64,000 bases of DNA, from positions 117,643 to 181,642 of the IMG/VR virus record IMGVR_UViG_3300037502_003770; one strand, 5' to 3'. The DNA is from a virus. Below are positions 25,840-64,000 of this stretch, piece by piece. Under the pieces are notes generated by a model. The model made no database searches. It had not been told where the DNA came from and was given only the letters and a program-made list of their open reading frames with translations. Position 1 is the first letter of the stretch; each line of letters opens with the position of its first letter. Made by a program: the position numbers and the translations under genes.

Positions 25840-25894
25840 TTCTTTCCTTAAAAACCTTTCATTCTTAACAAATGAAAGGTTTTTTTGTATATAA
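25840..25894 (+). repeat. 55-bp exact direct repeat, copy 2
   Basis: Identical to 18754-18808; see that entry. Confidence 0.85.
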
Positions 25895-26146: not shown

Positions 26147-26170
26147 AGAAAATAAACTTTTGAATTCGTA

Positions 26171-26494: not shown

Positions 26495-26505
26495 AATATA
26501 TTCTT

Positions 26506-27653: not shown

Positions 27654-27664
27654 AACTTAATTAT

Positions 27665-28009: not shown

Positions 28010-28060
28010 AAAGGATATTCCACTACCAAAATATATTCTTCTCTTAAAATAACCATTTTT

Positions 28061-39194: not shown

Positions 39195-40703
39195 ATGAGA
39201 GATATTAAGAACATTGATAAGCTGAGTGATAATAATCATAAGATAGATATTTTATCTTTAAATAAATTTTTAATTGAGAGGGGAGATAATTTTTTAGAAA
39301 CTATTATTACAAACAATTATACCTTTATTAAGAGGGAAGATATTACAAAAGAATTTTTTCAATTAAATTATAAAAAGATTTTTCATGGTGAAAGTATTGA
39401 TGATTTGGATTTTCTTGGTAAAGATTTTCCTATTGAGTGGTATAATGTGGATATTTTTAAATATATTCTTGATACATATTTTATTTTATTTCCAGCTTTT
39501 AAAACAATAAAATTATTTCCAAAGGAGATATTCTATATTTATAATTATTGCGAATTATTTATTAAATATAATACAGTATTTTTAGAATATATACCAAAAG
39601 ATATTGAGAATTATTATGAACTTGTTAAACAAGCTTTTATCAAATATGATGAGATAATATGGAAAAATTGGTTTCCAAAGGAATATATTCCTCAATTAAG
39701 AAAAGACTTTCCTGATAATTTAACTGTTAAAGCTTATATTCAATTAAAAAATTTATCAGAAAATAAAAATTCTTTATTAAGGGAAGATTATCGTTATGTA
39801 TTAACTAATAGTGATGTATATCTTACTAAGAAGATAGAAGCTGTAAGTGATAAAAATAAGTTTGATGCTATTGCTTTTGATAAGTATTTACTTTCTTTTG
39901 GAAATAATGATTTACACAAGATATTATTTAATAAAAGGTATATTATTCCTAGTAAGGAGAGATTTCAAAAAAATTACATGAATATTTTAAGAAAGAATAA
40001 TACTGTTAAAAATATTCATGGTTATGATGATGAGAAATATGGTTATTTAAGTTCTTTAATACCTAAAGAGTATTATACTAAAGAAATGGTAGATAAGATA
40101 GTTGAACATTTTGGTTTATTTACTGTGGTAAAAAAGAGTCTAATAAATCAAAATGTTGATGGGTTTGCTAATTTGGTTAAGGAGTATATTACGAATAGGG
40201 CTGTTTATTCAATACTTGCCAACATTAATCCTTATATTGAGGGTTATTATGATTTATTTAAATATGCAATTGAGAAAAATCCTTTTTCGATTAAATATTT
40301 AAATACTGAATTTGATAGGTATGAAGAGCTTGCTTTATTTGCTGTTTCTATTAGTGCTGGTGTCTTATTTTATATACCAGAATATAAAAGAAGTTATTAT
40401 GTTTGTTTAAAAGCTGTTTCTGAAAATGGTTTTTTAATAAAAAGAGTACCAGAAGATGTTGAAAACTATTATTCTTTAGTAAAAGTTGCTTATTTACAGA
40501 ATAAAGATAGTATTAATGAAATTAATTTAAATCCTTATTATATTGATATGTTAAAAAAGGATTTTCCTGAAGACGAGGAGCTTCAAAAAAAGAAAGGTTT
40601 TGATGATGTATTTGATGACCCTTATAATTTTCTTAAAGAACATATTTCAAAACAGGTAAGAAAGTTATTAAAAGAAGCTATTTATAAGAAAGGAAATTTT
40701 TAA
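39195..40703 (+). CDS. Two-module DUF4116-like protein with LLKE tags, 502 aa
   Basis: Each module starts with the signature (D)K-x-S-D-x-x-x-K-[IF]-D...SLNKFLIERGDNFLE and continues with YFLCxxA-type helix pairs (for example YYVCLKAVSENGFLIKRVPED, DUF4116-like). The modules are separated by NSLLRED (LLRE 194-197), and the protein ends EHISKQVRKLLKEAIYKKGNF (LLKE 491-494). Known: DUF4116 is a helical repeat of unknown function in bacteria and large viruses. Inference: a virion or capsid-internal protein with protease sites at the tags. First gene of the late module; overlaps the next by one base. Confidence 0.8.
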   Translation: MRDIKNIDKLSDNNHKIDILSLNKFLIERGDNFLETIITNNYTFIKREDITKEFFQLNYKKIFHGESIDDLDFLGKDFPIEWYNVDIFKYILDTYFILFPAFKTIKLFPKEIFYIYNYCELFIKYNTVFLEYIPKDIENYYELVKQAFIKYDEIIWKNWFPKEYIPQLRKDFPDNLTVKAYIQLKNLSENKNSLLREDYRYVLTNSDVYLTKKIEAVSDKNKFDAIAFDKYLLSFGNNDLHKILFNKRYIIPSKERFQKNYMNILRKNNTVKNIHGYDDEKYGYLSSLIPKEYYTKEMVDKIVEHFGLFTVVKKSLINQNVDGFANLVKEYITNRAVYSILANINPYIEGYYDLFKYAIEKNPFSIKYLNTEFDRYEELALFAVSISAGVLFYIPEYKRSYYVCLKAVSENGFLIKRVPEDVENYYSLVKVAYLQNKDSINEINLNPYYIDMLKKDFPEDEELQKKKGFDDVFDDPYNFLKEHISKQVRKLLKEAIYKKGNF

Positions 40704-41302
40704 TGAAGAATTTTAATAAATTAAATGATACTAAACATGAGATAGATTTAATTTCTTTAAGTGATTTTTTACTTGAGAAGGATGATGATTATTTAGATAA
40801 GTTTATAAAAAAAGAATTTAAAAAACCTGAAGATATAACAGAGACATATCTTAAATTATGGTATAAGTATATATTTAATATAGATAGTTATTTTGGTGTA
40901 TCATACACTGAGTTTGATTTTACTGGTGATGATTTTCCTATTGAGTGGTATATGGATGCAAAATTTTTAGATACTTTATTTGAAGAATCTGGTATTAAGT
41001 TTTTAATGTGTGTACCAAAAGTATTAAGATATGATTATGAAGTTTGTGAACGTTCTATTAATAAAAACCCTATTTCTTTAAAGTATGTCCCAAAAGATAT
41101 TGAGAATTATTATGGTTTAGTAAAGCTTGCTTTTAAGAAAAAACAAAATTTAATTGGACAAAAATGGTTTCCAAAGGAATATATTCCTCAATTAAAGAAT
41201 GATTTGGATGATGAATTATCTCAACATTATTTAAATCTTCAGGAGCATATTTCAAAAGAAGTGAGGAAACTTTTAAAAGAATACTATTTAAAGAAAATAT
41301 AG
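40703..41302 (+). CDS. Single-module DUF4116-like protein with C-terminal LLKE tag, 199 aa
   Basis: Starts NFNKLNDTKHEIDLISLSDFLLEKDDDYLD; the segment IENYYGLVKLAFKKK...WFPKEYIPQLKND is shared with 39195 and 59559. Ends EHISKEVRKLLKEYYLKKI (LLKE 190-193). Nearest relative is the first module of 39195 (GDDFPIEWY in both), so a local duplication. Confidence 0.8.
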   Translation: MKNFNKLNDTKHEIDLISLSDFLLEKDDDYLDKFIKKEFKKPEDITETYLKLWYKYIFNIDSYFGVSYTEFDFTGDDFPIEWYMDAKFLDTLFEESGIKFLMCVPKVLRYDYEVCERSINKNPISLKYVPKDIENYYGLVKLAFKKKQNLIGQKWFPKEYIPQLKNDLDDELSQHYLNLQEHISKEVRKLLKEYYLKKI

Positions 41303-41306
41303 TTAG

Positions 41307-42869
41307 ATGGGATTAGTGTATAATAATAAGAGGATTAAAAAAGATATAAGTGATATTCACAATATTGATATTATTTCTTTAAATAAATTTCTTCTTGATA
41401 AGGGTGATAAATTTTTTGGAAAGTTATTATATTACAATTGGTGTTTACTTCCTGATAAGGAGACTTTTCAAAAGAATTGGATGTATTATATTGAAAAGTA
41501 CGATAAATACAATGAAGATGGTTTTGGTAAAAAATCAAATTTAATACCAAAAGAATATTATACAAAAGAGATAATTAATTCTATATTAAAAACTGATTTT
41601 GATAGTAATCATAGTTTTACTTTAATTAATCAATATGCTGATGGTTTTGCTGAAAGTGTTAAGGGTTATTTATTAGATAGAGTTATGTATACAAATTTGT
41701 TATATTTTATTAAATCTGATATACCTGGTTATTTTGAGTTATGTAAATCTTTAATAAAAAAGAACCCATCATATATTGACTATGTACCTAAGACTTATGA
41801 TAATCAAAAATTAGTTGAGCTTTGTGCGTTAGCTGTTTCTATTGATGGTATGATTTTAAGATATGTTAGAGATAAAATTGATTTATTTTCAAATCCAAAT
41901 GTTATATATACGGCAATTAAAAATAATACAATAGCTTTAAGATTTGTACCTACTAGTATAGAAAATTATTATTCTTTTCTTAAAACAGCTTATACATTAA
42001 ATAAAAGAATAATTTCAATAGATAGTGCAAAAGAATATCTTGATGATTTAAAAAGAGATTTTCCTGAAGATATAGATTTTATTGAGAAGCGAATTAATCT
42101 TCAAGAAAATAAATCTTTATTAAAGGAAGAGAATTTTAATGAGGAGTCTTTTGTTTTTACTTCAGATAGACATAAGATAGATATTAAATCTTTAAGCAAT
42201 TTCTTAATTGAGAAGGGTGACAGGGTTTTAGATACATTATTATATGCTCGTGGTTATAAGGAAATAGATTATTATTCAGATTTTTTTAGGGAAGAGATTA
42301 TAAAATATGTTAATTCTGATATTATTAAAAAGATTCCAAAAGAATTGTGGGATGATTATTCTTTTTGTTTAACAGTTTCTTCAAGAAATGGTTATTATGC
42401 AATTGATTTTATTAATGAAGATTTTTTAAATGATTATAATATTGTAAAAAATCTTTTAACTCAACAAGGTGAATTAATAAATAAAGTTAATCCTGATATT
42501 TTGGATGAGAAATTAATTAGATTAGCGAATAAAACAAATACTAGTGGAAAAGATTTAACTGATACTTGTTATTTTTGGGAACATTATGATGGGAGGTATG
42601 AATTATTAAAGAAAATTATTTCTGTATACCCTGATAAAATAAGGTTTATTAGACCTAGTGATAGTAGATTTGCTGTTGATAAAAAATATTATGAATTATT
42701 AAAAATAGCTTACTTAAAGAATAAGAATATTTTAAGATATAAAGATATTAAATACAAGTATACACCTTATTATGAAAAATTAAAAAATGAGTTTGGTATT
42801 AAATTTTATTTAAAAGAGTATATTTCAAAACAGGTAAGAAAGTTATTAAAAGAAAAAATCTCCTTATAA
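41307..42869 (+). CDS. Two-module DUF4116-like protein with LLKE tags, 520 aa
   Basis: Module 1 (SDIHNIDIISLNKFLLDKGD) ends with LQENKSLLKEEN (LLKE 271-274); module 2 (SDRHKIDIKSLSNFLIEKGD) ends EYISKQVRKLLKEKISL (513-516). ALAVSIDGMILRYVRDK and SFCLTVSSRNGYYAIDFINED are DUF4116-like helices. Its stop lies inside the bidirectional terminator shared with the convergent 42864 gene. Confidence 0.8.
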   Translation: MGLVYNNKRIKKDISDIHNIDIISLNKFLLDKGDKFFGKLLYYNWCLLPDKETFQKNWMYYIEKYDKYNEDGFGKKSNLIPKEYYTKEIINSILKTDFDSNHSFTLINQYADGFAESVKGYLLDRVMYTNLLYFIKSDIPGYFELCKSLIKKNPSYIDYVPKTYDNQKLVELCALAVSIDGMILRYVRDKIDLFSNPNVIYTAIKNNTIALRFVPTSIENYYSFLKTAYTLNKRIISIDSAKEYLDDLKRDFPEDIDFIEKRINLQENKSLLKEENFNEESFVFTSDRHKIDIKSLSNFLIEKGDRVLDTLLYARGYKEIDYYSDFFREEIIKYVNSDIIKKIPKELWDDYSFCLTVSSRNGYYAIDFINEDFLNDYNIVKNLLTQQGELINKVNPDILDEKLIRLANKTNTSGKDLTDTCYFWEHYDGRYELLKKIISVYPDKIRFIRPSDSRFAVDKKYYELLKIAYLKNKNILRYKDIKYKYTPYYEKLKNEFGIKFYLKEYISKQVRKLLKEKISL

Positions 42870-42878
42870 AAGGAGATT
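42857..42878. terminator. Bidirectional terminator between convergent genes
   Basis: AATCTCCTT / AAGGAGATT with a 4-base loop; A run on the left and T run on the right, so it can end both transcripts. The two genes' last codons overlap within it. Confidence 0.8.
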
Positions 42879-43523
42879 AATTTTTATTTGTTTAATTTCT
42901 TCTTTAAGAATTTTCTTTACTTGTTTTTGTATATATTCTTCAAGATAATTTCTATCGATTTTATTTGGATTAACAATATTTAGTTTAATATTTCTTTGAT
43001 TACAAAGGTTTTGTAGTTCATCTATAATTTCTTGAGGGTCACGATAATCCACATCCTCATAATAATTATCTACTTTTTTTATATCTATTTGAATAATGTA
43101 TTTTGAAAAATTTTCAATTCTATCTTTATTTGATAAAATCCTATCTTCATACTCAAAATTCCTATCATCTTTATTAGCAAATTTAAAATGGTTAAATGGT
43201 TGACCTTTATAAGTTTGTGAAAGTTTTCTACCATCTAATTTTAATCTAACAATAAAATCTAAATCATATAATTCTTTTTCATTCCAATCATTATTTAATT
43301 TATAAAAACCAGTTTTTGATGATTTAGTTCTACTTAGTGATAAATAATTATATCCATTTATATAATCATCATCTTCACCATATTTTAAATAAAAAATATC
43401 ATCTTTTAAAATACTTATAATACTACTTAACGTTGTAAAATGATATACTTCATCAGTTACAGATTCTTTTAATAAACTCTTTACTTGTTTTTGTATATAT
43501 TCTTTTAATAATTGATTTTCCAT
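42864..43523 (-). CDS. Stand-alone ART-like protein with tags at both ends, 219 aa
   Basis: N-terminus LLKEYIQKQVKSLLKES (LLKE 5-8 and 17-20), then the domain TDEVYHFTTLSSIISIL...YLSLSRTKSSKTGF...IVRLKLDGRKLSQTYKGQPFN...FEYEDRILSN...YIIQIDI, then a C-terminal copy EEYIQKQVKKILKEE (ILKE 205-208). The H in YHFT, the S-L-S-R-T strand and the E of EYEDR resemble the H-Y/S-E plan of ADP-ribosyltransferase folds (DarT-like YHIT). Three copies of this domain occur in the next gene. Activity not proven; could be an unrelated small fold. Confidence 0.7.
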   Translation of the reverse strand: MENQLLKEYIQKQVKSLLKESVTDEVYHFTTLSSIISILKDDIFYLKYGEDDDYINGYNYLSLSRTKSSKTGFYKLNNDWNEKELYDLDFIVRLKLDGRKLSQTYKGQPFNHFKFANKDDRNFEYEDRILSNKDRIENFSKYIIQIDIKKVDNYYEDVDYRDPQEIIDELQNLCNQRNIKLNIVNPNKIDRNYLEEYIQKQVKKILKEEIKQIKINLLL

Positions 43524-43540
43524 TAAAAATAACTCTTTTA

Positions 43541-43548
43541 TATAAATA
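43541..43548 (+). promoter_or_regulatory. T4-late-like TATAAATA box
   Basis: Exact TATAAATA 46 bases before the 43595 start, in the short gap between divergent genes. T4 late promoters consist of this octamer. In AT-rich DNA it could be chance. Confidence 0.35.
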
Positions 43549-43594
43549 GGTTTTATTTTAAAATTACTATTTAAGAAAAAGATGATTATTTTTA

Positions 43595-46500
43595 ATGAAA
43601 GATATTAATGTAATAAATGATAATAATAAGATAGATTTAAGTTCTTTGAATAAATTTCTTATTAGTAAAGGTGATGAGTATTTAGAATATTTATTAATTA
43701 GTAATGTTTATAATAAAAATATTACAGAAGACAAAATTAGAGAATATGTTTTAAAAGGTTATAATATTAAAGAAGAATTATTAAAGTTTGTTACAAAAGA
43801 TAAAGAATTATATTCATATATTAGTTTAATGAATAAAGTACTTGAAGAAATATATAAAGAAAATTCAAGCGAAGAAGATACTGAGTTTTATATATTACCT
43901 TTAGATTTTATTAAAAGTAATAAATATTTTTCAATAGATAAATTTTTTAGTGTATATGGTGGGTATGCTATTAGATTTATACCATATGAATTACAAACAA
44001 AAGAATTATGGGAATTTTCAGCTTTAAAATCACCTTATTTTATAAGTGATGATAGTTTTCCTCAAGAGTATAAAAGTTATAATTTATTTTTAAAATTAAT
44101 TGAGATTGAATCATCTCTTATTTATGATGCAGCTGATAGTAATATTTTTAATAAAGATGAGATTTATAATTTATTCGAGTTTACATACAAAAAATATATT
44201 AAAGAAAATAATGTATCTGAATTTTGGAAAACACATAGATATAACCCATTAGATTTTAAAGATATATATCTTAAATTAGCAAGTAATTTTAAACATGAAT
44301 CATATTTAAAAAAATATGGGATTCCTGATATTCATGATGTACCTAGATTTGCATTTAATGAAAGTAAGTCTTTATTAAAAGAAGAAACTTTATTGGATAA
44401 ATTTAAATTAATGGATGAAAATAAGATTGATTTATTTTCTTTAAATAAATTTCTTCTTTCAAAAGAAGATAATTTATTAGAATATTTATTATTAGAGAAT
44501 AATTTAATTTTTGGTTTAGATGAAAATAAAATTAGAAACTTTATATTAAAAGGTTATAAACCGTTAGAAACATTTCCTAATAATATAAAAATTGATATGG
44601 ATTTAAAGGAGTATGTTAATGTATTATTAACTTTTGAATCTATTAAATATATTCCTAATGAGAAATATACTGTTTCGTATGCTAAATTAAAAGATAATAA
44701 ATATATTTCAATAGAAGGTCTTTTAAAATATAATTCTTTATTTATTAGGTATATCCCTGAAAATTTATTAACACAAGAAATATGTAATAATGTATATAAT
44801 AAAAATTACAGAATTTTTAGAGAAATTCCAAATAGGTTTAAAACATATGAAATGTGTGAAAATGTTATAGGTAAAAACGCATATTTTTTTGTTTATTTAC
44901 CTGACCCTTTGGATAATGGTACTTTAATTACGGTTCAGGAATGTTATAAATTATTAAAACTTGCTCATACTTATTATATTGATAAAGATAAATTTTCAAA
45001 TGGTGTTGAACAATTTTGGAGTGATGCTATTGTTTCAAAATTAGATAGAGATTATTTTGTTAGATTAATGTATGAAGTAAATGCACAAGAATATGTAGGA
45101 AAATACGGTCAGGGTGGTATTAAGAAAAATAATAATCTTCAAGAAAGTAACTCTTTATTAAAGGAAGAAGAATTCTTTAATGTAGAACAACTAGAATATG
45201 ATTCAGATAAAAATAAAATAGATTTACAAGAATTAAGTGAATTTTTATATAATAACGGAGATGATTATTTAGAATATTTATTAGCCAATAAAGAATATAT
45301 TAAAGTTGATAGTAAAAATGTTTTTAGATTATATAAAAATAAAAATTTTAAAGATGTAACTGAATTTTTAAATATTGGTTATGATTTTTTAAATGTAATA
45401 TTAACTGACCCTATTGAAAAAAACAAAATAGAACAATTTTATTTAAAAAACCGATACCCTCATGATTATCCAGATATTTTATGGGAAAGTCGTGCATTTT
45501 GTGAGGCTGCTTTAATTAAACAAAAGAGTTGTTTATATAAAGTACCACTTAAATTTAGAGATTATAAAATGTGTAAGCTTGCTGTTAGTTTTGATGGTGA
45601 TAATATAAAAAGTGTACCTGAAAATATTGAGAATTATTATTCTCTTTGTGAAATGGCTGTTTCTCAAAGGGCTTGGTCTTTGATGTTAATTGATAAGAAT
45701 AAATGGGATTATAATTTATATGAAAAAGCTGTTTCTCAGAATGGTGGTGTTTTATTTTATATACCTGAAAAATATAGAGACTATAATTTATGTGAAAAAG
45801 CTGTATCTAGTGAACCTAGTTCAATATATGATGTACCTAAAAATATTGAGAATTACTATTCTTTAATAAAACTTGCTTACTCAAAGGATAAAACAGTTAT
45901 ATTAGATATGAATTTACCAAAAGAGTATTTTGATAAATTAAAAAATGATTTTCCTAAAGACTTTAATCTTCAAGAAAGTAAGTCTTTGTTAAAGGAAGGA
46001 ATTACTGATGAGGTATATCATTTTACAACATATCAATCAGCTGCTGAAATATTACAATATAATAGATTTAAATTTTCTATTGAGACTGAAGGTGATTCTT
46101 TATCAAGGATGAATAATTACAAAAATTATATGTCTGTAAGTAGGACTAAGTCTTTAAATAAAGGTTTTTTTAATACAATAAAGAATGGTGTTAATTTAGT
46201 TATTAGATTTAAACTTGATGGTAGAAAATTAGCTCAAAAATATAAAGGTATTCCATTTAATTATTTCCCTGCTTGGGGTAAAGAAAATTATGCTTTTGAA
46301 TATGAGGATAGATTGCTTTCAAATGATGAATATATTGAAAATTTTTCAAAATATCTTTTATCTGTAGATATTATTGATTTAACTATTGGAAATAATATAA
46401 ATAAAACAAAAATCCATACAATAAAAGAATTATCTCAAAAATTAAATCTTGTTTGCAATGTTTATAAACATGATGATAATAATATTGTAAGAAAACAATT

Positions 46501-48574
46501 TCAATCCGACCCGATTAATTTTATTAAAAATAAAGGAACTTTTGTTTTAAATGATTCTTTTTTTACAAAAGAAATTGTTGATGAAATATATAATCATTTT
46601 AAAGAAAATATTTATACATATATTCGTTTATCTCAAATACCAGCTGAATTTAGAAATTATGAGCTTTGTGAATTATATATAAAAAAGAACCCTATTAATA
46701 TTATAGGAGTACCTTCACCAAATAATACTTTAATAAAAAACAATTTAATATCAAGAGAAGAATATATGTCTTTGGTAAGGATAGCTTTTTCTTTAGATAA
46801 AAATATAATAGATTATATCCCAGATGAATTTGAGAAAATATTAAGAGATGAAATTAATAAAGCAAGTAATAATAATCTTCAAGAAAGTAAATCTTTATTA
46901 AAGGAAGGTATTACTGATGAGGTGTATCATTTTACAAGTTTAGAAAATTTTATTAAAATAATGAATACAAATACATTTAGATTTTCAGATTTATTATATG
47001 ATTTAAGTGATGTTATTCATAATACACCTTTAAAAAAATATAAATATTATATGTCTTTAAGTAGGACTGGTTCAATAAAAACAGGTTATGGTAACTATCA
47101 AAGTGATAATAGTAATTTTATTGTTAGATTAAAAATAGATGGTAGAAAACTTTCGCAAAGTTATAAAGGTCAACCAATAAATTATCATAATTATGGTAGA
47201 AAACAAAAATCTAGTAAAAAAACTAGTTTTAGATTTGAATATGAGGATAGAATATTATCCAATAAACCAACTATTGAGAATTTTTCAAATTATGTTTTAA
47301 GTGTTGATATTATTAAAATTACTAATTCATCTAATAATTTTTTATTAGATGATGATATGAAATCATTAGAATATATATTAAAAAATAAAGAAAATTATAA
47401 CGCACCAATAAATTTCACAAATGAAAAAAATTCACCTCTTAATGAAAATAAATCTTTATTAAAGGAAGGTATTACTGATGAGGTGTATCATTTTACAAGT
47501 TTAGAGAATTTAATTAGAATATTAAAAAGTAATTCTTTAAATTTAAGTTTTATGGATAATGATATTAATCAGACTTGGAATAGGAAAGATAGCAATATAC
47601 ATAAAACTTTAAATAAATATATGTATTTTTTATCATTAAGTAGAACAAAGAGTATTGATAAAGGTTATGCTCAAGTATTAAAATCACAAAATATACCTGT
47701 CATTACCAGAATTAAACTTGATGGTAGAAAACTTTCTTTTAATAATAAAATTATACCTTTTGATTATAATCAAACTATTAGCCGAAATGTTAATAAAAAT
47801 GATAAATATTTTGAATACGAAGATAGATTAGTTAGTGATAAATCTTCAATTAAAAATATAAATAATTATATTTTAGAGATTGATATTTTTATGTATTATA
47901 ATTATGATTTTCAAAAAGATAGTTTTTTATTCTTAAAAGAATATCAAAATACCACAAATATACCGATAAAAGTTTTTAATAAAGTAAAAAATAATTCTTT
48001 AAATGAAAGTAAATTATTATTAAAGGAAGATTATACAGAGGAAGAAGTTTTAGAAGAAATAAGTGATAAAAATAAAATAGATTTAATTTCTTTAAATAAA
48101 TTTCTAAAAGAAAATAATGATGATTATTTAGAATATTTATTATTTTATAATGATTTTTTAAATATAGAAAGAAATATTATAAAAATAGTAAAAAATAAAT
48201 ACATTACAGGTTTTGGTAGTTTCCCAATAAAATATTTATATCAACCAAAAGTAATAAGAGAAATAGTATTAAGAAATCCTGAATTATTAGAAAGATTGAA
48301 TTTATATTACTTAGAAAGAATGGAAGATAGTAAACAGGAAATGAAAGATATTTACAAATACGCTGTAATAAATAAACCAAATATGTTATCACGTATACCA
48401 ACTAATCTACCTTATTATGATGAACTGCTTGAGGTGATGTTTCAAAAAGATAGAGGTAACTTATTTGATTTATTAATTATTCAACCAAAATCTATTCAAC
48501 AAAGTAATATGTTAAATAAAGTAATATCTTTTTTACAAAATAAAGGTTATACTTTAGGAAAAAATCCTTCTTAA
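43595..48574 (+). CDS. Seven-segment polyprotein with DUF4116-like and ART-like modules, 1659 aa
   Basis: Six LLKE linkers, at residues 260-263, 521-524, 798-801, 1101-1104, 1288-1291 and 1475-1478, usually inside LQESKSLLKE, divide it into segments of 263, 261, 277, 303, 187, 187 and 181 residues. Segments 1-3 and 7 begin with the DKNKIDLxSLNKFL signature (DUF4116-like helices clear in segment 3). Segments 4, 5 and 6 begin ITDEVYHFT and carry SLSRT (SVSRT in segment 4), LDGRKL (IDGRKL in segment 5) and FEYEDR, as in 42864; segment 4 adds DUF4116-like helices. Inference: an injected internal protein cut at L-K-E by a prohead protease. Confidence 0.85.
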   Translation: MKDINVINDNNKIDLSSLNKFLISKGDEYLEYLLISNVYNKNITEDKIREYVLKGYNIKEELLKFVTKDKELYSYISLMNKVLEEIYKENSSEEDTEFYILPLDFIKSNKYFSIDKFFSVYGGYAIRFIPYELQTKELWEFSALKSPYFISDDSFPQEYKSYNLFLKLIEIESSLIYDAADSNIFNKDEIYNLFEFTYKKYIKENNVSEFWKTHRYNPLDFKDIYLKLASNFKHESYLKKYGIPDIHDVPRFAFNESKSLLKEETLLDKFKLMDENKIDLFSLNKFLLSKEDNLLEYLLLENNLIFGLDENKIRNFILKGYKPLETFPNNIKIDMDLKEYVNVLLTFESIKYIPNEKYTVSYAKLKDNKYISIEGLLKYNSLFIRYIPENLLTQEICNNVYNKNYRIFREIPNRFKTYEMCENVIGKNAYFFVYLPDPLDNGTLITVQECYKLLKLAHTYYIDKDKFSNGVEQFWSDAIVSKLDRDYFVRLMYEVNAQEYVGKYGQGGIKKNNNLQESNSLLKEEEFFNVEQLEYDSDKNKIDLQELSEFLYNNGDDYLEYLLANKEYIKVDSKNVFRLYKNKNFKDVTEFLNIGYDFLNVILTDPIEKNKIEQFYLKNRYPHDYPDILWESRAFCEAALIKQKSCLYKVPLKFRDYKMCKLAVSFDGDNIKSVPENIENYYSLCEMAVSQRAWSLMLIDKNKWDYNLYEKAVSQNGGVLFYIPEKYRDYNLCEKAVSSEPSSIYDVPKNIENYYSLIKLAYSKDKTVILDMNLPKEYFDKLKNDFPKDFNLQESKSLLKEGITDEVYHFTTYQSAAEILQYNRFKFSIETEGDSLSRMNNYKNYMSVSRTKSLNKGFFNTIKNGVNLVIRFKLDGRKLAQKYKGIPFNYFPAWGKENYAFEYEDRLLSNDEYIENFSKYLLSVDIIDLTIGNNINKTKIHTIKELSQKLNLVCNVYKHDDNNIVRKQFQSDPINFIKNKGTFVLNDSFFTKEIVDEIYNHFKENIYTYIRLSQIPAEFRNYELCELYIKKNPINIIGVPSPNNTLIKNNLISREEYMSLVRIAFSLDKNIIDYIPDEFEKILRDEINKASNNNLQESKSLLKEGITDEVYHFTSLENFIKIMNTNTFRFSDLLYDLSDVIHNTPLKKYKYYMSLSRTGSIKTGYGNYQSDNSNFIVRLKIDGRKLSQSYKGQPINYHNYGRKQKSSKKTSFRFEYEDRILSNKPTIENFSNYVLSVDIIKITNSSNNFLLDDDMKSLEYILKNKENYNAPINFTNEKNSPLNENKSLLKEGITDEVYHFTSLENLIRILKSNSLNLSFMDNDINQTWNRKDSNIHKTLNKYMYFLSLSRTKSIDKGYAQVLKSQNIPVITRIKLDGRKLSFNNKIIPFDYNQTISRNVNKNDKYFEYEDRLVSDKSSIKNINNYILEIDIFMYYNYDFQKDSFLFLKEYQNTTNIPIKVFNKVKNNSLNESKLLLKEDYTEEEVLEEISDKNKIDLISLNKFLKENNDDYLEYLLFYNDFLNIERNIIKIVKNKYITGFGSFPIKYLYQPKVIREIVLRNPELLERLNLYYLERMEDSKQEMKDIYKYAVINKPNMLSRIPTNLPYYDELLEVMFQKDRGNLFDLLIIQPKSIQQSNMLNKVISFLQNKGYTLGKNPS
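45964..46024 (+). repeat. Linker-to-domain DNA repeat, copy 1
   Basis: Encodes NLQESKSLLKEGITDEVYHF; near-identical DNA at 46874-46935 and, slightly shorter, 47441-47500. The DNA similarity exceeds that of the flanking modules. Confidence 0.7.
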
Positions 48575-48586
48575 TTAGAAGGATTT
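48562..48586. terminator. Bidirectional terminator between convergent genes
   Basis: AAATCCTTCT / AGAAGGATTT hairpin with a 5-base loop, flanked by A and T runs. Confidence 0.8.
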
Positions 48587-48616
48587 ATTTTTTTATAATA
48601 AGATACCTCGTTTATT

Positions 48617-49579: not shown

Positions 49580-49582
49580 GTT

Positions 49583-52569: not shown

Positions 52570-53323
52570 TTACTTTTCTTTTAAATAGTAATTCTTTTAA
52601 AAGTTTTTTTACCTCTCTTGAAATATATTCTCTTAAATTAAACTTCTCTTTTATTTGTTTTAATATCAAAGGGTCTTCTATATAGTAAATAAGGGTTTTA
52701 TCATTAGAAACAACTATTTCCCAAAGGTGAAAATCTTGTAAATGTTTAGGTACATGAAATATTGAATCAGAAAAACTTAAAACAGCTTTTTCACAAAGAG
52801 AGTAATCTATAATTTTTTTAGATACATATGGTAAACAACCATATTGAGACGTAACAGCTTTTTCACAAAGAGAGTAATAATTTTCAATATTATCAGGTAC
52901 AAATTGTAAAGCTGTGCCATCTTGAGAAATAGCTTTCTCGCAAAGAGAATAATCTCTTAATTCTTCTGGCACAAATTCTAAAGCTGTTCCATTTGTAAAA
53001 ACAGCTTTCTCACAAATAGAATAATCTCTTAAATGTTTAGATACAAATTCTAAAATCCAACCATTTTTAGAAACAGCTTTTTCACGAAAAGAATATATAT
53101 TCCATAATTCTTTTGGTATACGTTTAATATCATCTTCTTCATTGCTGTATATTATACTTATATAATAATTTAGTAATCTTTTATTAGAAAGGTTTTTTTC
53201 TTTAAAACCATTTACTTGCAATAATATATCTATTAAATCATCTCCTTTCTCAAGTAAAAAATTATTTAAAGAAAGTAAATCTATTTTATGTTTATCACTT
53301 ATATTTTCTAACTTATTATTCAT
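52556..53323 (-). CDS. DUF4116 repeat protein with C-terminal LLKE tag, 255 aa
   Basis: Starts NISDKHKIDLLSLNNFLLEKGDDLID, then at least five DUF4116 repeats of the form DYSLCEKAVSxNGxALxFVPExL (residues about 75-215). Ends LREYISREVKKLLKELLFKR (LLKE 241-244). Clearest DUF4116 member of the window. First gene of the minus-strand run, divergent from 53384. Confidence 0.85.
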   Translation of the reverse strand: MNNKLENISDKHKIDLLSLNNFLLEKGDDLIDILLQVNGFKEKNLSNKRLLNYYISIIYSNEEDDIKRIPKELWNIYSFREKAVSKNGWILEFVSKHLRDYSICEKAVFTNGTALEFVPEELRDYSLCEKAISQDGTALQFVPDNIENYYSLCEKAVTSQYGCLPYVSKKIIDYSLCEKAVLSFSDSIFHVPKHLQDFHLWEIVVSNDKTLIYYIEDPLILKQIKEKFNLREYISREVKKLLKELLFKRKVNGST

Positions 53324-53383
53324 TATAAAAAATTACTTTTCTTTTAAATAGTAATTCTTTACTATTTACAATAAACAATATTT

Positions 53384-53860: not shown

Positions 53861-53864
53861 GAAA

Positions 53865-55349
53865 ATGAAAATTAAAAATATAAAAAGAATTTTAAAGGAA
53901 GAAACCAAAGGTGAAAGATATTTGAATAGTAAACTATCTAATATGGGTCCTATGGGTATATCAAGACAGATTAGTAATCTTGGTGGTTACGGTCAAATAG
54001 ATACTTTAAAGAAAGCTGAAGAAGAATTTTATAAATTACATAGAGTAGAATTTAAATTAAATAATCAAAAATATGAGGGTTATTTTATTGTATATCCTCA
54101 AAGTGATAATACTCTTATTTTTTATGATGGTTTACCCTTTGCAAAAAAGAGAGATACGATGTATACAGGCGGTGAATTAAATAAAGATAAATCTGTAATA
54201 TTTACAGGTTCAAGAGTAGATTTACAACTTTTAAAAACATATCAAAACTTTCTAAAAAGATTTAATTTAAAAAGTATAGTGTTAAAAGGATTTCCTGATA
54301 TTACTGAACAAATTAAAAAAAATATAATTGTTGATGTAAAATTATTTTTTGAACAATTATATAATCTTTTTATTATAAAAAATGAATTTTATAAAGAAAT
54401 AGATGATTTTATAAATATATTTACTCAATTAAAAAAATACCCAAAAAATAGTAGATTGAATCGTAATGTAATTGATAAATATACTAATTTTAGAAATAAT
54501 TTTGTTAATAGTAATGTATTGGAAAATAATATATTTAATGTCTTTAATAGTTATAATGTTGATGAAGCTTTTAATACTAGTGATATATCTGGTTTGTATA
54601 TATATTTTAATTTTATAAAAAATAATATCGAAGAAATAAGAAATTCATCATCACAAATAATTAAATTTTTAGAAAATTTATCTAATAAAAATAGTACCAG
54701 AATTAGTCAACCGTTTATCAGTAGTGATAAATATGATGTTAGTTATATTGTTAACGTAAAAAATAATTTATTACCAGGTGTTAAATCAGAATTAAAAAAT
54801 CAAATACTTGAATTTACCTATATTAGTGAAAACTTAATAGATAAATCTAACTATAAAATGGGTAAATCTTTGGGTGTTATGAAAATTAATGGTATATCTT
54901 TGAATATGAGGGATAAAAATGATAAATATGAAATAATATTTGATGCTGAAAAAAGTATTATTTCATTAACTATTAACGGTAATAAACAATCTGGTAGTGA
55001 TAGGGATAATAGTCTTAAAAAAATATTAGATAATATTTTTATTCAAAAATTTAATGGTGAATTTAATTATATAAATACTAAATTAATAAATGATGCTATA
55101 AATAATAAAATGTATAATTTTAATTATATTGAAAATAATAATAGACATTATCGTTTAGGTAGGTCAGGCGCACCTTTTAAATTTGATATTCTTTTCTATA
55201 ATGACTTAGATGGTACAATGTTTAAAGGTAAATTACCTAACATTAATATTATATCCTTACAAATAAATGATTTTAAAATATTAAAAGAACAGACAACATA
55301 TATAGATGAAATAAAAATAAATATTGAATTTATATCAACAAATAATTAA
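53865..55349 (+). CDS. Virion-module protein with N-terminal ILKE tag, 494 aa
   Basis: MKIKNIKRILKEETKG is the tag placed at the N-terminus (ILKE 9-12), as in T4-type capsid-targeting peptides that end at the cleavage site. Then GPMGISRQISNLGGYGQID, an alpha/beta part (VEFKLNNQKYEGYFIVYPQS, LKSIVLKGFPDIT), a long helical middle and a C-terminal beta part (RAPFKFDILFYNDLDGTMF-like). No family recognised. Confidence 0.65.
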   Translation: MKIKNIKRILKEETKGERYLNSKLSNMGPMGISRQISNLGGYGQIDTLKKAEEEFYKLHRVEFKLNNQKYEGYFIVYPQSDNTLIFYDGLPFAKKRDTMYTGGELNKDKSVIFTGSRVDLQLLKTYQNFLKRFNLKSIVLKGFPDITEQIKKNIIVDVKLFFEQLYNLFIIKNEFYKEIDDFINIFTQLKKYPKNSRLNRNVIDKYTNFRNNFVNSNVLENNIFNVFNSYNVDEAFNTSDISGLYIYFNFIKNNIEEIRNSSSQIIKFLENLSNKNSTRISQPFISSDKYDVSYIVNVKNNLLPGVKSELKNQILEFTYISENLIDKSNYKMGKSLGVMKINGISLNMRDKNDKYEIIFDAEKSIISLTINGNKQSGSDRDNSLKKILDNIFIQKFNGEFNYINTKLINDAINNKMYNFNYIENNNRHYRLGRSGAPFKFDILFYNDLDGTMFKGKLPNINIISLQINDFKILKEQTTYIDEIKINIEFISTNN

Positions 55350-55351
55350 AT

Positions 55352-57841: not shown

Positions 57842-57846
57842 TTAAT

Positions 57847-58776: not shown

Positions 58777-58813
58777 AATAATATACTATTTATAATTAAA
58801 ATAATTAATAATT

Positions 58814-59569
58814 ATGATTAATTTAGGTATTATAAAAACAAATCTGAGTAGAGTTGTAGCTGAGAATCTATTATCTGAAAATAAAGATATTAATAAAGTT
58901 GATTTATATAAAAATTTTTTAAATATTCTTAAAACATCAGATATTCTTATGTTGGAATATAATATATTTAAAAATTTTGAACAAAAGAATCATTCTATTG
59001 AATCAGCTTATAATTTAATATCTGAAAATTTAAGACCGATAAAGTCTTTTACAAAGAAAGAAATTATTAATGAGAATAAAAAAATAAAAGATTTTAATTT
59101 AAAAAATAATCTTTCTCAAAAAGAAAACACTTTTTATAATGCTATTCATAATTTAATTATGGAATCAACAGCTAAATATCCTGATATTAATCTTTTACAT
59201 GAATCACATGAAATTATATTAAATTCTTTACTTGAAAAAAAATCTCTTATTAAAGAAGAAAGACAAATTAATAAAGTAAATAATGCTGTTATAAATTTGG
59301 CTACTAAAAAAATTAATGAAGAGATAGGTAAATTCTCTTCTAAAGAAAAAGATATATTGCAAACTTTATCTAAAGGAACTTTTAATGATAAAGTAATGTT
59401 GCTTGAAAATATTAAAGGTGAGTGTAAGATATTAATAGAAGATTCTAAATCTTTAATAGAAGATTATGTTTATGAAAATACTATTAATAAAATAAATAAT
59501 ATTGATGCAACGCCTGAAACTATAAATGAATCAATACTTGATTTATATTCTTTGTTAAGTGATGAATAA
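58814..59569 (+). CDS. Helical virion-module protein, 251 aa
   Basis: Entirely helical and charged; residues 139-147 LLEKKSLIKEE contain an IKE site like the other tags. SLLSDE at the end overlaps the next start (59559). Looks like a scaffold or core protein, but no family is recognised. Confidence 0.6.
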   Translation: MINLGIIKTNLSRVVAENLLSENKDINKVDLYKNFLNILKTSDILMLEYNIFKNFEQKNHSIESAYNLISENLRPIKSFTKKEIINENKKIKDFNLKNNLSQKENTFYNAIHNLIMESTAKYPDINLLHESHEIILNSLLEKKSLIKEERQINKVNNAVINLATKKINEEIGKFSSKEKDILQTLSKGTFNDKVMLLENIKGECKILIEDSKSLIEDYVYENTINKINNIDATPETINESILDLYSLLSDE

Positions 59570-60365
59570 ATTAAAAGTAATTAATGATAATAATCAAATA
59601 GATTTACTTTCTTTAAGTAATTTTTTATTAAGAAAAAAAGATGATTATCTTGAAGCTTTATTAAAAATAAATGGTTATAAAAAATTAATTATTGATTATA
59701 ATAGTGATTTCTTTTTTGATAGAATTTTACCATACGGAGAATCAAAATATTTTAATGTAAATATAATACCAGACCAATATTGGTATAATTATGATTTTTG
59801 TATGAGAGCCATTTCGTCTAATGGCTGTGGTTATTTATTATCTTATGTACCGAAAGAATTAAGAGATTATAAACTTTGTAAGAAAGCTGTATCTGATAAA
59901 AATAGTGCTGGTATTATTTTAGGTTTTGTTCCAAAAAAATTAAGAGATTATTCTCTTTGTGAAATAGCTGTTTATAGTGATTGGATGAATTTAGAATATG
60001 TACCAGAAAATTTAATAGATTCTTCTTTATGTGAAATAGCTATCACTCAAAATGGTTATTCTTTAAAATTTGTACCGAAAGAATTAAGAGATTATTCTCT
60101 TTGTGAGAAAGCTGTTAATAATAATGCTTTCGCTTTACAGTTTGTTCCTAAAAATATTGAAAATTATTATTCTTTACTAAAAATAGGTTTTAAACAATAC
60201 GATTCAGCTTTAGTTAGTAATGAATGGTTTCCAATAAACTATATTCCTCAATTAATCAAAGATTTTCCACAATATAAAGAATCACTTGAATCGTATCTTC
60301 TTCAAGAATATATTAAAAAAGAAGTAAAGAAATTATTAAGGGAGTACTATTTAAAAGAAAAATAG
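59559..60365 (+). CDS. DUF4116 repeat protein with C-terminal LLRE tag, 268 aa
   Basis: NDNNQIDLLSLSNFLLRKKDDYLE start; four to five DUF4116 repeats (YVPKELRDYKLCKKAVSD, FVPKKLRDYSLCEIAVYS, FVPKELRDYSLCEKAVNN); then IENYYSLLKIGFKQYD and WFPINYIPQLIKDFP as in 39195. Ends EYIKKEVKKLLREYYLKEK (LLRE 259-262). Overlaps 58814 by 11 bases. Confidence 0.85.
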   Translation: MMNKLKVINDNNQIDLLSLSNFLLRKKDDYLEALLKINGYKKLIIDYNSDFFFDRILPYGESKYFNVNIIPDQYWYNYDFCMRAISSNGCGYLLSYVPKELRDYKLCKKAVSDKNSAGIILGFVPKKLRDYSLCEIAVYSDWMNLEYVPENLIDSSLCEIAITQNGYSLKFVPKELRDYSLCEKAVNNNAFALQFVPKNIENYYSLLKIGFKQYDSALVSNEWFPINYIPQLIKDFPQYKESLESYLLQEYIKKEVKKLLREYYLKEK

Positions 60366-60366
60366 T

Positions 60367-61608
60367 ATGTCGTTTTTCAATTGTAACCTTGATGAAATCA
60401 ATAAATATAAGATAGTAGATATTGATATATCAGATAATAAATCATGGAATTTAAATACTGGTTTAACTATTAATTCATTAAAAAAATATAATGATGCAAT
60501 AACATCTACTTTTGAATTACCTACTTATGGATTAACAGCGTTTGATTATGGTTTAGTTAATTCATTAACAGCAACAACTACCATCAATTATACAGATAAT
60601 AAATTAAAATTACAAAGAGTAGGAGAAAATGATTTTACTGGTAATACAAGTTATACTGGGTATAGTATTACACCTGTAACAACAGCTACTACTGTAGGGA
60701 ATTATTTTCTTTTAGAAGGAGGATATTTTACAGGGTTTTATAAACTTCATGATTATGAATATGAAATATTACCTTATAGATATAACGAAGGTTTAACTAT
60801 TTCAACATGGATTAATGTACAATCAGGTATTACTTTTGAAAATATTTTATCTGAAAAAGATGGTTTCTTTTTTTATATGGGTGCTTTAGCTGAGAATAAA
60901 TATTCATTAGCTTATTCAGGTGATACAATATATTCTTCTTTTACTGGAACAAATATCACAAAAAATGTAGATTTATCAGGAAATACAACAGGTTTAACAA
61001 ATATTTTTTTAAATGACCATACTGATTTAGAATCAGGTATTACTAAAAATATAATAGCTTTTAGAATAAATCAAAATAAACAGATAGGTTATAGATTTTT
61101 AGATTATACTGGAAATACAATAGAAAATTATTCTGATAAAGAAATTTCTTATGGATGGAATAATATTACAATAACATTTAAACCAAAAGAATTAATTAAA
61201 GATAAAGATTTATTAAATTGTTATAAAGATAGGGATATGGTATTGACAATTTATTTAAATGGGATTATTATTTATGAAGAAATAGATTTTAAAGAAATAT
61301 GGTTTAAAGAAATGTTTACTGAAAGAGAAAAACAATTACATATACCATATGTTATTAATTGGGGTGGAGGTAGTTTTGGTTTAAAACATTCTTGGCATTT
61401 CAATAATTCATTAAATGAGTTTATTCAAGATGAAAGAAAAAAAGATTTATTAATTGAGAAAAATTTTGATGGTTCTTTTTATGGTGGTATTCAAAAATTG
61501 GAATTATATAATAAAGCGTTAAATTTTATTGAGGTAAGAAAAATTATTGAATATTATTCAAAATATAATATAAATAATTTTAAAGGCGGAAGATTGATTA
61601 ATATATAA
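60367..61608 (+). CDS. Structural protein with LamG/ConA-like fold, 413 aa
   Basis: LEGGYFTGFYKLHDYEYEILPYRYNEGLTISTWINVQSG (about 118-156) is the first strand pair of a jelly-roll LamG domain; VLTIYLNGIIIYEE and FDGSFYGGIQKLELYNKALNFIEVRKI (near the end) close it, as in LamG_3 proteins. Probably a tail fibre, decoration or adsorption-related protein binding glycans. Flanked by two tag-bearing DUF4116-type genes. Confidence 0.7.
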   Translation: MSFFNCNLDEINKYKIVDIDISDNKSWNLNTGLTINSLKKYNDAITSTFELPTYGLTAFDYGLVNSLTATTTINYTDNKLKLQRVGENDFTGNTSYTGYSITPVTTATTVGNYFLLEGGYFTGFYKLHDYEYEILPYRYNEGLTISTWINVQSGITFENILSEKDGFFFYMGALAENKYSLAYSGDTIYSSFTGTNITKNVDLSGNTTGLTNIFLNDHTDLESGITKNIIAFRINQNKQIGYRFLDYTGNTIENYSDKEISYGWNNITITFKPKELIKDKDLLNCYKDRDMVLTIYLNGIIIYEEIDFKEIWFKEMFTEREKQLHIPYVINWGGGSFGLKHSWHFNNSLNEFIQDERKKDLLIEKNFDGSFYGGIQKLELYNKALNFIEVRKIIEYYSKYNINNFKGGRLINI

Positions 61609-62195
61609 TGAAGAATATTGATAAGGTTAGTGATAGAAATCAAATAGATTTACTTTCTTTAAATAAATTCTTTATTGAGAAAGGGGATGATGAATTAGAA
61701 TATTTATTATGGAATAATCAACTTATAGATACTAATTATTCAAATGAACGTATACAAAATTATATTATAAAAAGATTTCAACCTAATGAAATAAAGAATG
61801 AGTTTTATTTATCATATAAATTTTGTGAAAAAATAGTTACTAAAGATGGTATGGCTTTAATGTATGTACCCGAACATTTAAAAGATTATAATCTTTGTGA
61901 GAAAGCTGTTAATAATGAACCATATGCTATACATTTTATACCAAAAACAATAGAAAATTACTATGAATTAGTAAAAATTGTTTTTAAATTAGCAGTTAAA
62001 TGGAAATTAAAAGAGTCTGAAATTTTTAAATATATATCAAGAGATGATTTAATACAATTAAAAAAAGATTTTCCAGAACATATAGATTTTTTTGATGAGC
62101 TTAACTTAAAAGAATATATTTCCAAAGAAGTAAGAAAATTATTAAAAGAACAAATTTTTAAAAATAAAAACTATTTAATTAAAAATATAAAATAA
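61608..62195 (+). CDS. Short DUF4116-like protein with C-terminal LLKE tag, 195 aa
   Basis: KVSDRNQIDLLSLNKFFIEKGDDELE start, two DUF4116-like repeats (FCEKIVTKDGMALMYVPEHLKDYNLCEKAVNNEPYAIHFIP), end EYISKEVRKLLKEQIFKNKN (LLKE 178-181). Stop overlaps the next ATG. Confidence 0.8.
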   Translation: MKNIDKVSDRNQIDLLSLNKFFIEKGDDELEYLLWNNQLIDTNYSNERIQNYIIKRFQPNEIKNEFYLSYKFCEKIVTKDGMALMYVPEHLKDYNLCEKAVNNEPYAIHFIPKTIENYYELVKIVFKLAVKWKLKESEIFKYISRDDLIQLKKDFPEHIDFFDELNLKEYISKEVRKLLKEQIFKNKNYLIKNIK

Positions 62196-64000
62196 TGAAT
62201 ATTAAGAAATATTTAGAAGGTAAATCAATTACAGAAGCCGAATATAAAGGAAGAAAAGTAAGTTTAAATAAACCTTTCAGAACACCAGGCGGACCTAAGA
62301 AATTTAGTGTGTATGTTAAAAATGAAAAAGATAATGTAGTTAAAGTTAATTTTGGAGACCCAAATATGAGGATTAAAAGAAATTCCCCTGAAAGAAGAAA
62401 AAGTTTTAGAGCAAGACACAAATGTGATACACCAGGTCCAAAAACAAAAGCAAGATATTGGAGTTGTCAAGCAGGTTGGAATAAAACAAAATCTGTAAAG
62501 GATTTAATTAAGGAAGAATATAAAAGTAAATCATCTCATTTTAGATGGGAAGATACTTATAAGAGTGAAGAACAGGCTTGTAGTGATTATATGGCTGGTG
62601 TTAATTCTTCAAGTGGGACTATACAAATAGTAGACCCAAAAATTTCTTGTTATTATGAATTATGTAAAATATCAGTTTCAAAAAATTGGTCAAATTTAAA
62701 ATTTATATCAGGTGCTTATCTTGAAAATTATGATGATATATGTTTAATTGCTATTAAACAAGATGAGAGTGCTTTTCGTTTTATTGAAATTAAATTTGTT
62801 AAATCTAATAATTTAAAACAAATGTATAACGAATATCATCAGAAATATTTAGATAGAGAAACAACTTGGGATAATAGTACTAAAGAAGATTATAGGAATT
62901 ATTACGGATTAAATAATATTAATGAAAGTAAAACTTCAATTAAAAAAATAATTACTGAAGAAATACTAAAACAATTAAAAGAAAATACTCAAACAAAAGA
63001 ATATGAAAATCATTTAAAAGATAAATTAAGAAAAAATGGTTTAGCTTTACAGGATGTACCAAAAGATATTATTAATTATGATTTATTATGTAAGATAGCT
63101 CTTACACAAAATGGTCATGCTATTCAATTTATAGACCCTTCAAACGAATCATATTATCAGTTTTGTCAAATTGCAATTAGACAAAATCCTTATTCAATAT
63201 CTTTAATTGATGAAAATAGTTTTTCTGAAAAAGAACTTTATTTCCGTCTTTGTGAAAGAGCTTATTTAATTAATCCTGATGTAATTAAATCTATTCCGCA
63301 AGAATATCAAGAGAAATTAAAAACTTCTTTTAATAATCCAGAATATAGAAAAGAAAAAGAAAATCAATTTCCTCAATCTGGTGATATTATGGAATCAGAT
63401 GACCTTCAAGAAGGTTGGAGAGATAATATAACAAAAGTATTAGCTGGTTTGTCTTTAATTACAACTTTAAATACAGGTGTTTCTTTTGCAAAAGGTGGTG
63501 AAAAAGATAGGGCTGTTAAAGAATATATTTCAAAGAAATTTACTGGGAATATTGAAGATGTTGCTGGCTATACAAAAGGTGGTTATCCTGTTTATAAAAA
63601 AGATTCTCCTTCAGCAAAAGAATTCAATGCTAAATATAATAATGCTATTGAAAATAAAATTCCTTCTTTTGAATATAACGGTTTTACTTATCAAGTAAAT
63701 AATAATAGTAGGGAAAAATTAGATATTTTAGGTATTGCTCAATTAGGTCTTAAAACCGATTTAAAACAACCTGAAATTAGTAATAAGCGTTATGATGTAC
63801 CAGCTGTTAAAAGTGTCTCTGAGCCTGAAAGTGGGGGTAATTCAGTAGATAATAGTAAGAGTACAAACATATCCAAATTTAATAAGAATAAAATTTATGA
63901 TTTATCGGCAGAAATAAATAATAATATTCGTAATAGTGATAATGAATGGTTTGAATTACCTGATGATTATATGAAGTATTTAAAATCGTATGGTAAAGAA
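62195..64000 (+). CDS. T4-type head-core-like multidomain protein, partial (602 aa in window)
   Basis: ATG at 62195 overlaps the preceding TAA; open to the window end. Residues 24-90 (RTPGGPKKFSVYVKNEKDNV, VNFGDPNMRIKR, SPERRKSFRARHKCDTPGPK, ARYWSC) match a Cys-containing domain that I recall in core/scaffold or protease-adjacent proteins of large T4-like phages. It is followed by DLIKEE (104-107), DUF4116-like helices, KIITEEILKQLKEN (LKE 261-263), more DUF4116-like repeats, and after residue 400 a hydrophobic segment (TKVLAGLSLITTLNTGVSFA) and a new domain. Another candidate polyprotein, since L/I-x-E sites fall between its domains. Confidence 0.75.
   Translation, partial: MNIKKYLEGKSITEAEYKGRKVSLNKPFRTPGGPKKFSVYVKNEKDNVVKVNFGDPNMRIKRNSPERRKSFRARHKCDTPGPKTKARYWSCQAGWNKTKSVKDLIKEEYKSKSSHFRWEDTYKSEEQACSDYMAGVNSSSGTIQIVDPKISCYYELCKISVSKNWSNLKFISGAYLENYDDICLIAIKQDESAFRFIEIKFVKSNNLKQMYNEYHQKYLDRETTWDNSTKEDYRNYYGLNNINESKTSIKKIITEEILKQLKENTQTKEYENHLKDKLRKNGLALQDVPKDIINYDLLCKIALTQNGHAIQFIDPSNESYYQFCQIAIRQNPYSISLIDENSFSEKELYFRLCERAYLINPDVIKSIPQEYQEKLKTSFNNPEYRKEKENQFPQSGDIMESDDLQEGWRDNITKVLAGLSLITTLNTGVSFAKGGEKDRAVKEYISKKFTGNIEDVAGYTKGGYPVYKKDSPSAKEFNAKYNNAIENKIPSFEYNGFTYQVNNNSREKLDILGIAQLGLKTDLKQPEISNKRYDVPAVKSVSEPESGGNSVDNSKSTNISKFNKNKIYDLSAEINNNIRNSDNEWFELPDDYMKYLKSYGKE

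What the first reader, a model, noticed from the sequence alone, without database searches (positions are those of the whole stretch)
39195..64000. A shared helical tag (EYISKEVRKLLKE and variants) on at least eight virion-module proteins
Seen: C-terminal tags at 39195, 40703, 41307, 42864, 52556, 59559 and 61608; N-terminal tags at 42864 (LLKEYIQKQVKSLLKE) and 53865 (IKRILKEE); internal ones at 62195 (IITEEILKQLKEN). The proteins carrying them are otherwise of different types. Known: T4 uses short capsid-targeting sequences ending in a protease site. Inference: this is a capsid- or core-targeting address that can sit at either end.
Basis: partly seen in the sequence, partly recalled or inferred. 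Interest (0 to 1): 0.82.

Follow-up and report, generated by a model that had tools for sequence, protein, structure and literature searches.

The report
Capsid address tags on phage cargo
A giant bacteriophage appears to label many proteins, at their front, back or between domains, with a short helix bounded by probable cutting sites for its head-maturation protease, which would load them into the virus head for delivery to the host; the front-end version is known from phage T4, whereas a shared back-end and between-domain version is not described in the papers searched.

Summary
In a 312.7-kb T4-type phage record, a 16-residue helical tag, LxE-[YH]ISKEVRKL-LKE, ends ten DUF4116 proteins (six in the window; those six are one paralogous family, not "different types"). 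It is also internal in another. It sits at both ends of an unrelated protein (42864, minus strand), which folds like an ADP-ribosyltransferase, and inside two further virion-region proteins. A profile built only from DUF4116 tags scores these four sites at 34, 30, 23 and 18 bits; the best of 20 shuffled proteomes is 14.6. None of 313 non-virion ORFs carries it. The "tags" at 53865 and 62195 are not significant. The strongest addition is the 1659-aa ORF (43595-48574): all six LLKE linkers lie 3-16 residues before a DUF4116-type or ART module, the layout of a cleavable polyprotein. The phage has a T4 gp21-type prohead protease, and its capsid protein carries the matching LNE|S site. ART relatives in four other phages with the T4-type head genes start just after short N-terminal tags; in Alishewanella phage Slickus01 nine genes of several folds share one. 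Best reading: a T4-like capsid-targeting/propeptide system extended to C-terminal and inter-module positions. No virion proteomics exists here.

The parts
39195..40703 (+). Two-unit DUF4116 protein; internal linker LSENKNSLLRE (39753-39785) and C-terminal tag FLKEHISKQVRKLLKE (40629-40676)
40703..41302 (+). DUF4116-type protein (below Pfam cut-off on its own, aligns with the family); C-terminal tag NLQEHISKEVRKLLKE (41234-41281)
41307..42869 (+). Two-unit DUF4116 protein; internal linker LQENKSLLKE (42099-42128) and C-terminal tag YLKEYISKQVRKLLKE (42807-42854)
42864..43523 (-). ADP-ribosyltransferase-fold protein (KptA/DarT-like) tagged at both ends: LLKEYIQKQVKSLLKE (N, 43464-43511) and YLEEYIQKQVKKILKE (C, 42900-42947)
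   Evidence: tag helices H2-20 and H191-218 flank the core; core confidence modest; Tpt1 Z 9.9, DarT Z 8.2-8.5
43595..48574 (+). 1659-aa candidate polyprotein: three DUF4116-type units, then three ART modules (the first followed by a DUF4116-like stretch), then one DUF4116-type unit. Linkers end at residues 263, 524, 801, 1104, 1291 and 1478 (FNESKSLLKE 44354-44383; LQESNSLLKE 45137-45166; LQESKSLLKE 45968-45997; LQESKSLLKE 46877-46906; LNENKSLLKE 47438-47467; LNESKLLLKE 47999-48028)
   Evidence: every LLKE in this ORF is 3-16 residues before a module start
52556..53323 (-). DUF4116 protein; C-terminal tag NLREYISREVKKLLKE (52592-52639)
53865..55349 (+). Unrelated 494-aa protein with LxE-ended N-terminus MKIKNIKRILKE (53865-53900); not significant as the same tag
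59559..60365 (+). DUF4116 protein; C-terminal tag LLQEYIKKEVKKLLRE (60297-60344), inside one confident C-terminal helix (residues 237-267)
61608..62195 (+). DUF4116 protein; C-terminal tag NLKEYISKEVRKLLKE (62103-62150)
62195..64000 (+). Multidomain ORF with DUF4116 repeats, running past the window end; weak internal tag-like NESKTSIKKIITEEILKQLKE (62921-62983, not significant) and LQE|GW before a signal-peptide-like stretch (63398-63418)

Best explanation
The tag is a capsid-targeting propeptide module of the T4 kind, used here at the N-terminus, at the C-terminus and between fused domains. Proposed working: (1) late-expressed DUF4116 and ART proteins are recruited into the prohead core by the amphipathic helix (EYISKEVRKLL). 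(2) The gp21-type prohead protease cuts after LxE at the tag borders, freeing each protein from the core. (3) In the 1659-aa ORF and other fused ORFs the same LxE-bounded linkers are cut, giving about seven separate proteins of 22-36 kDa. (4) The freed cargo stays in the mature head and is ejected with the DNA, as T4 Alt, also an ADP-ribosyltransferase, is. Shown here: tag, LxE borders, module layout, protease, capsid-protein site, confinement to virion regions, ART fold. Inferred: steps 1, 2, 3 and 4 themselves.
For: gp21-type protease, gp23 and gp20. Capsid protein LNE|S at residue 60; 38 of 39 related capsid proteins read INE|A there and the 39th also reads INEA. The protease's own N-terminus has LLKE|S. 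Invariant tag residues include both LxE borders. Tag on non-homologous proteins above any shuffle. 14/129 virion-region against 0/313 other ORFs. DUF4116-like proteins at 61-66 kb of the record lack the tag, so it is not an obligate part of that fold. Six of six polyprotein LLKE sites at module borders; 0 of 200,000 random placements. ART modules start just after short Glu-ended N-terminal tags in Slickus01, Mel-JY01, K566 and SCTP-2, and all four have gp21- and gp23-type head genes. In Slickus01 nine genes of several kinds (DEVYHF-type ART relatives, ART-PolyVal, a kinase-like protein, others) share MKIDxLYESLLEE-type starts. The Slickus01 kinase-like gene matches module 1 of our fused ORF 309832 (1e-6). 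ART fold. Literature: T4 IPs and Alt carry N-terminal CTSs cut by gp21, and Alt is also cut at its C-terminus (PMC9026906); the SPN3US protease has a C-terminal propeptide proposed to target it to the prohead core (PMC7411985).
Against: No virion proteomics or cleavage data. The residue after LxE at the C-tags is mostly Y, H, Q, K or T, unlike S or A after the capsid-protein site, so the C-terminal sites may be cut poorly or not at all. AlphaFold2 places the whole C-tag in one stable helix, a poor protease substrate unless it unfolds. Paralogy explains most C-tag sharing, and the region test counts paralogues separately and rests on regions I assigned partly by eye. LxE is a weak motif (40 instances in the polyprotein, only about 11 at borders), so only the longer context is informative. 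No other record with this exact tag was found.
Confidence: 0.68

Rival explanations
1. Paralogy plus docking: the C-tag is the terminal helix of the DUF4116 family, a permanent dimerisation or docking helix for a virion (perhaps tail or baseplate) structure, never cleaved and not a targeting address.
For: Six of the tagged window proteins are one family; the tag is a confident continuous helix and strongly amphipathic (moment 99.7th percentile); several tagged genes sit between baseplate-type genes.
Against: The same tag is on both ends of an ART and inside 192127 and 229576. DUF4116-like proteins outside virion regions lack it. It is bracketed by invariant LxE. Linkers of the polyprotein keep the LxE pair but not the helix core.
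Confidence: 0.2
2. The long ORFs are uncleaved multidomain 'polyvalent' proteins packaged and injected whole; the LLKE linkers are only spacers spread by duplication.
For: Phage-encoded polyvalent proteins with ART domains are described (PMC5512222). Linkers between duplicated units could be copied with the units.
Against: Linkers are alike before DUF4116-type units and before ART modules, which are unrelated. The same ART module, alone in other phages, follows a short Glu-ended tag at its N-terminus. A matching protease is encoded.
Confidence: 0.25
3. Compositional artefact: a K/L/E/I-rich proteome yields LLKE-like helices everywhere.
For: K, I, N and L are each about 10% of residues; scattered single LLKE occur in early genes.
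Against: 46 against 8.8 expected; PSSM hits far above shuffled and reversed controls.
Confidence: 0.03

Closest known systems
T4 capsid-targeting sequence (CTS) of IPI-III and Alt, cut by gp21
   Same: Short tag on ejected head proteins bounded by a gp21-type site; includes an ADP-ribosyltransferase cargo; Alt is processed at both ends (PMC9026906), as 42864 would be
   Different: T4 CTSs are N-terminal; here one related tag is shared by many C-termini and by inter-module positions, bounded by LxE on both sides
phiKZ-type head propeptides (SPN3US, 201phi2-1, phiKZ)
   Same: Many head proteins cut after Glu by a gp21-related protease; the SPN3US protease has a C-terminal propeptide proposed to target it (PMC7411985)
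   Different: SPN3US uses AXE and mostly long N-terminal propeptides without a shared short tag (PMC5694885)
P1 DarB N-terminal packaging signal
   Same: A short segment sufficient to bring a reporter into the capsid (PMC9024508)
   Different: N-terminal, a single very large protein, no paired LxE-bounded helix reported in the passages read
Polyvalent proteins of phages and conjugative elements
   Same: Multidomain, probably injected proteins that can contain ARTs (PMC5512222)
   Different: Here modules are joined by repeated protease-site-like linkers; the T4 Alt-type ARTs are stated there not to be in genuine polyvalent proteins

Membership tests
T4-type capsid-targeting sequence | gp21-type prohead protease encoded by the same phage | tested here: met
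   PF03420 1.2e-27; PHROG head maturation protease 8e-48
T4-type capsid-targeting sequence | Tag ends in a site matching the phage's own maturation site (LxE) | tested here: met
   LLKE/LLRE in most tags and linkers (FLKE, ILKE or HLKE in a few); capsid protein LNE|S at residue 60, INE|A in 38 of 39 relatives with the last also INEA. Residue after the site differs at C-tags
T4-type capsid-targeting sequence | N-terminal position | tested here: not met
   Met for 42864 and for the ART relatives in four other phages, not met for the DUF4116 carriers, whose tag is C-terminal or internal
T4-type capsid-targeting sequence | Carried by proteins of unrelated folds | tested here: met
   DUF4116 repeat proteins, an ART, 229576, 192127
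T4-type capsid-targeting sequence | Sufficient for packaging and removed in the virion | not testable with these tools
   needs virion proteomics and reporter fusion
ADP-ribosyltransferase (42864 and polyprotein modules) | ART fold | tested here: met
   Foldseek 4e-4 to Tpt1; VIA Z 9.9 Tpt1, 8.2-8.5 DarT, most next rows also ARTs; model mean pLDDT 58
ADP-ribosyltransferase (42864 and polyprotein modules) | Enzyme activity and catalytic residues | not tested
   Conserved H, S/R and E residues seen but not assigned
DUF4116 (PF13475) | Score above Pfam cut-off | tested here: met
   most tagged proteins; 35 matches in the record; 40703 is below the cut-off on its own (20.1 against 24.9)

The most novel reading that the evidence does not exclude
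A phage packages effectors as a polyprotein: several ADP-ribosyltransferases and DUF4116-type units are made as one chain, carried into the prohead by shared address tags at either end, and cut apart inside the capsid by the maturation protease before injection.
Probability: 0.45. Interest if true: 0.8.

Novelty: new variant of a known kind. Interest (0 to 1): 0.62.

Why it matters
A tag with readable borders gives a sequence-only way to list the injected cargo of giant phages, most of which is unannotated. It points to a large set of probable host-takeover proteins (DUF4116-type units, KptA/DarT-like ARTs), and to C-terminal and inter-domain targeting, which would widen the T4 rules and offer a C-terminal handle for loading proteins into phage heads.

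Tried and rejected
Searches for close relatives of the tagged proteins in IMG/VR gave none: 42864, the DUF4116 alignment A2 and 192127; DUF4116 had no match in isolate phages by tblastn. DUF4116-like proteins of Salicola phage SCTP-2 do not share a visible tag. Foldseek gave no meaningful PDB match for the DUF4116 model. A first regular expression for the capsid-protein site was wrong and was redone. Slickus01 ParB-like and ART-PolyVal genes have no detectable counterpart in this phage. The LxE|GW plus hydrophobic pattern was not found in the related head loci. 53865 and 62195 rejected as members of the tag.
Full report
SETTING. The window is bases 117643-181642 of a 312,694-base virus record, G+C about 0.22. 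The record encodes a T4-type head: prohead protease (Peptidase_S77/gp21, 1.2e-27), major capsid protein (Gp23, 1.5e-67) and portal (gp20, 2.3e-66), about 8-23 kb beyond the window. A baseplate-hub-type gene lies in the window (57847), and sheath, baseplate-wedge and baseplate genes lie elsewhere in the record.

THE OBSERVATION. The tag was read in six DUF4116 proteins of the window (39195, 40703, 41307, 52556 minus, 59559, 61608) and at both ends of 42864 (minus). A 16-column profile made only from DUF4116-family tags scores 34.1 and 30.1 bits on the two ends of 42864, which has no DUF4116 repeat. It scores 22.7 inside record ORF 192127 (between a nucleotidyltransferase-like domain and a DUF4116-type unit) and 18.3 inside 229576. 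The best value in 20 shuffled proteomes was 14.6, and the reversed profile reached 11.5. LL[KR]E occurs 46 times, 8.8 expected. The items at 53865 and 62195 fail this test.

WHERE IT OCCURS. Fourteen ORFs carry the strict tag, all in the virion-gene regions as I assigned them (14 of 129 ORFs), and none of 313 ORFs elsewhere does (Fisher p about 2e-8; paralogues counted separately, so this overstates the strength). DUF4116-like proteins at 61-66 kb of the record, outside those regions, lack the tag, so the tag is not simply part of that fold.

THE POLYPROTEIN. ORF 43595-48574 (1659 aa) holds four copies of the N-terminal motif of the DUF4116 units (residues 11, 276, 540, 1493) and three TDEVYHFT starts of ART modules (804, 1107, 1294). 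All six LLKE in it end at 263, 524, 801, 1104, 1291 and 1478, that is 3-16 residues before a module, in linkers of the form L[NQ]E[SN]xxLLKE (the first reads FNESKSLLKE). No random placement of six sites in 200,000 gave this. 39195 and 41307 have one such linker each, between their two units. Cutting would give pieces of 31.6, 31.0, 33.1, 35.7, 21.9, 22.3 and 21.7 kDa. Other fused ORFs show the same idea: 188157, 229576 and 309832 have an internal Met followed by a tag-like helix ending in LxE. Module 1 of 309832 matches a separate, tagged kinase-like gene of Alishewanella phage Slickus01 (E about 1e-6).

WHAT 42864 IS. AlphaFold2 on four window sequences gives a modest model (mean pLDDT 58, pTM 0.58) with tag helices at 2-20 and 191-218 around an alpha/beta core. 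Its best solved matches are tRNA 2'-phosphotransferase (Z 9.9, 110 residues, 3.2 A) and DarT (Z 8.2-8.5), and most further rows are ADP-ribosyltransferases. Catalysis was not tested. Pfam and PHROGs have no family for it.

INDEPENDENT PHAGES. tblastn finds the ART family in 22 annotated phages. In each of four examined, the domain starts just after a short N-terminus ending in LxE or a T4-CTS-like sequence: MIKLKSLLQE|I (Microcystis phage Mel-JY01), MKIEQLYESILEE|G and similar (Slickus01), MKKFNEFANELAEA (Vibrio phage K566), MNLNE|S (Salicola phage SCTP-2). In Slickus01 nine genes in a row, covering ART-like, ART-PolyVal (PF18760, 4.4e-11), kinase-like and other proteins, share the MKIDxLYESLLEE-type start. 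A degenerate pattern for it hits six times in that record, all in this cluster, with no control hits there. All four phages encode gp21- and gp23-type proteins, with [LI]xE or similar sites at the expected place in the capsid protein. This is what a capsid-targeting sequence should look like, and it does not depend on DUF4116 paralogy.

SITE LOGIC. This phage's capsid protein reads LNE|S at residue 60. Of 39 related capsid proteins 38 read INE|A at residue 60, and the one the pattern missed also reads INEA. T4 gp21 and its relatives cut after Glu in a short motif (PMC9026906, PMC5694885). In T4, IPs and Alt have 7-20 residue N-terminal propeptides that target them to the core and are removed, and Alt is now known to be cut at its C-terminus as well (PMC9026906). 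The doubly tagged ART 42864 would be a close functional parallel. SPN3US protease carries a C-terminal propeptide proposed to target it (PMC7411985).

WEAK POINTS. Nothing here shows packaging or cleavage. LxE alone is common. At the C-tags the residue after LxE is often Y or H, and the tag lies in one continuous predicted helix; cutting there may be slow, or the C-tag may stay on. Regions called virion were assigned partly by eye. No second record with the same tag was found.

VERDICT. The most likely account is a T4-type capsid-targeting and propeptide system, extended to C-terminal and inter-module positions and used on an expanded cargo set. That is a new variant of a known kind. The polyprotein reading is the most novel part and is directly testable.

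Noticed in passing
window 63398-63500 (ORF 62195) and record ORF 229576 (L003, minus strand): LQE|GW and LNE|GW are each followed by a signal-peptide-like hydrophobic stretch (...SFAKGG, ...QANAQS); a cut at LxE would expose a possible export signal on an injected protein.
   Followed up: partly
L001:8611-11013 (minus), portal gene: The portal gene carries an intein-like insertion (PF14890, 2.9e-9, residues 366-595; score 37.4 against cut-off 35.8).
   Followed up: no
window 12943-29436: Long run of about 30 small ORFs (roughly 85-200 aa), many ending in a shared 'SLLDLQFI' segment: a large tandem family of unknown function.
   Followed up: no
window 24586-25761; record 216501, 299232 and others: Several TnpB-like ORFs scattered through the phage genome (identified by eye only).
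   Followed up: no
window 48617-51769 (minus): Two minus-strand ORFs (320 and 728 aa) interrupt the plus-strand late genes right after the polyprotein; the first contains an HELRH metallopeptidase-like motif.
   Followed up: no
L095:10028-16630 (Alishewanella phage Slickus01): Cluster of nine genes with a common N-terminal tag; a ready list of candidate injected proteins in a cultured phage.
   Followed up: partly
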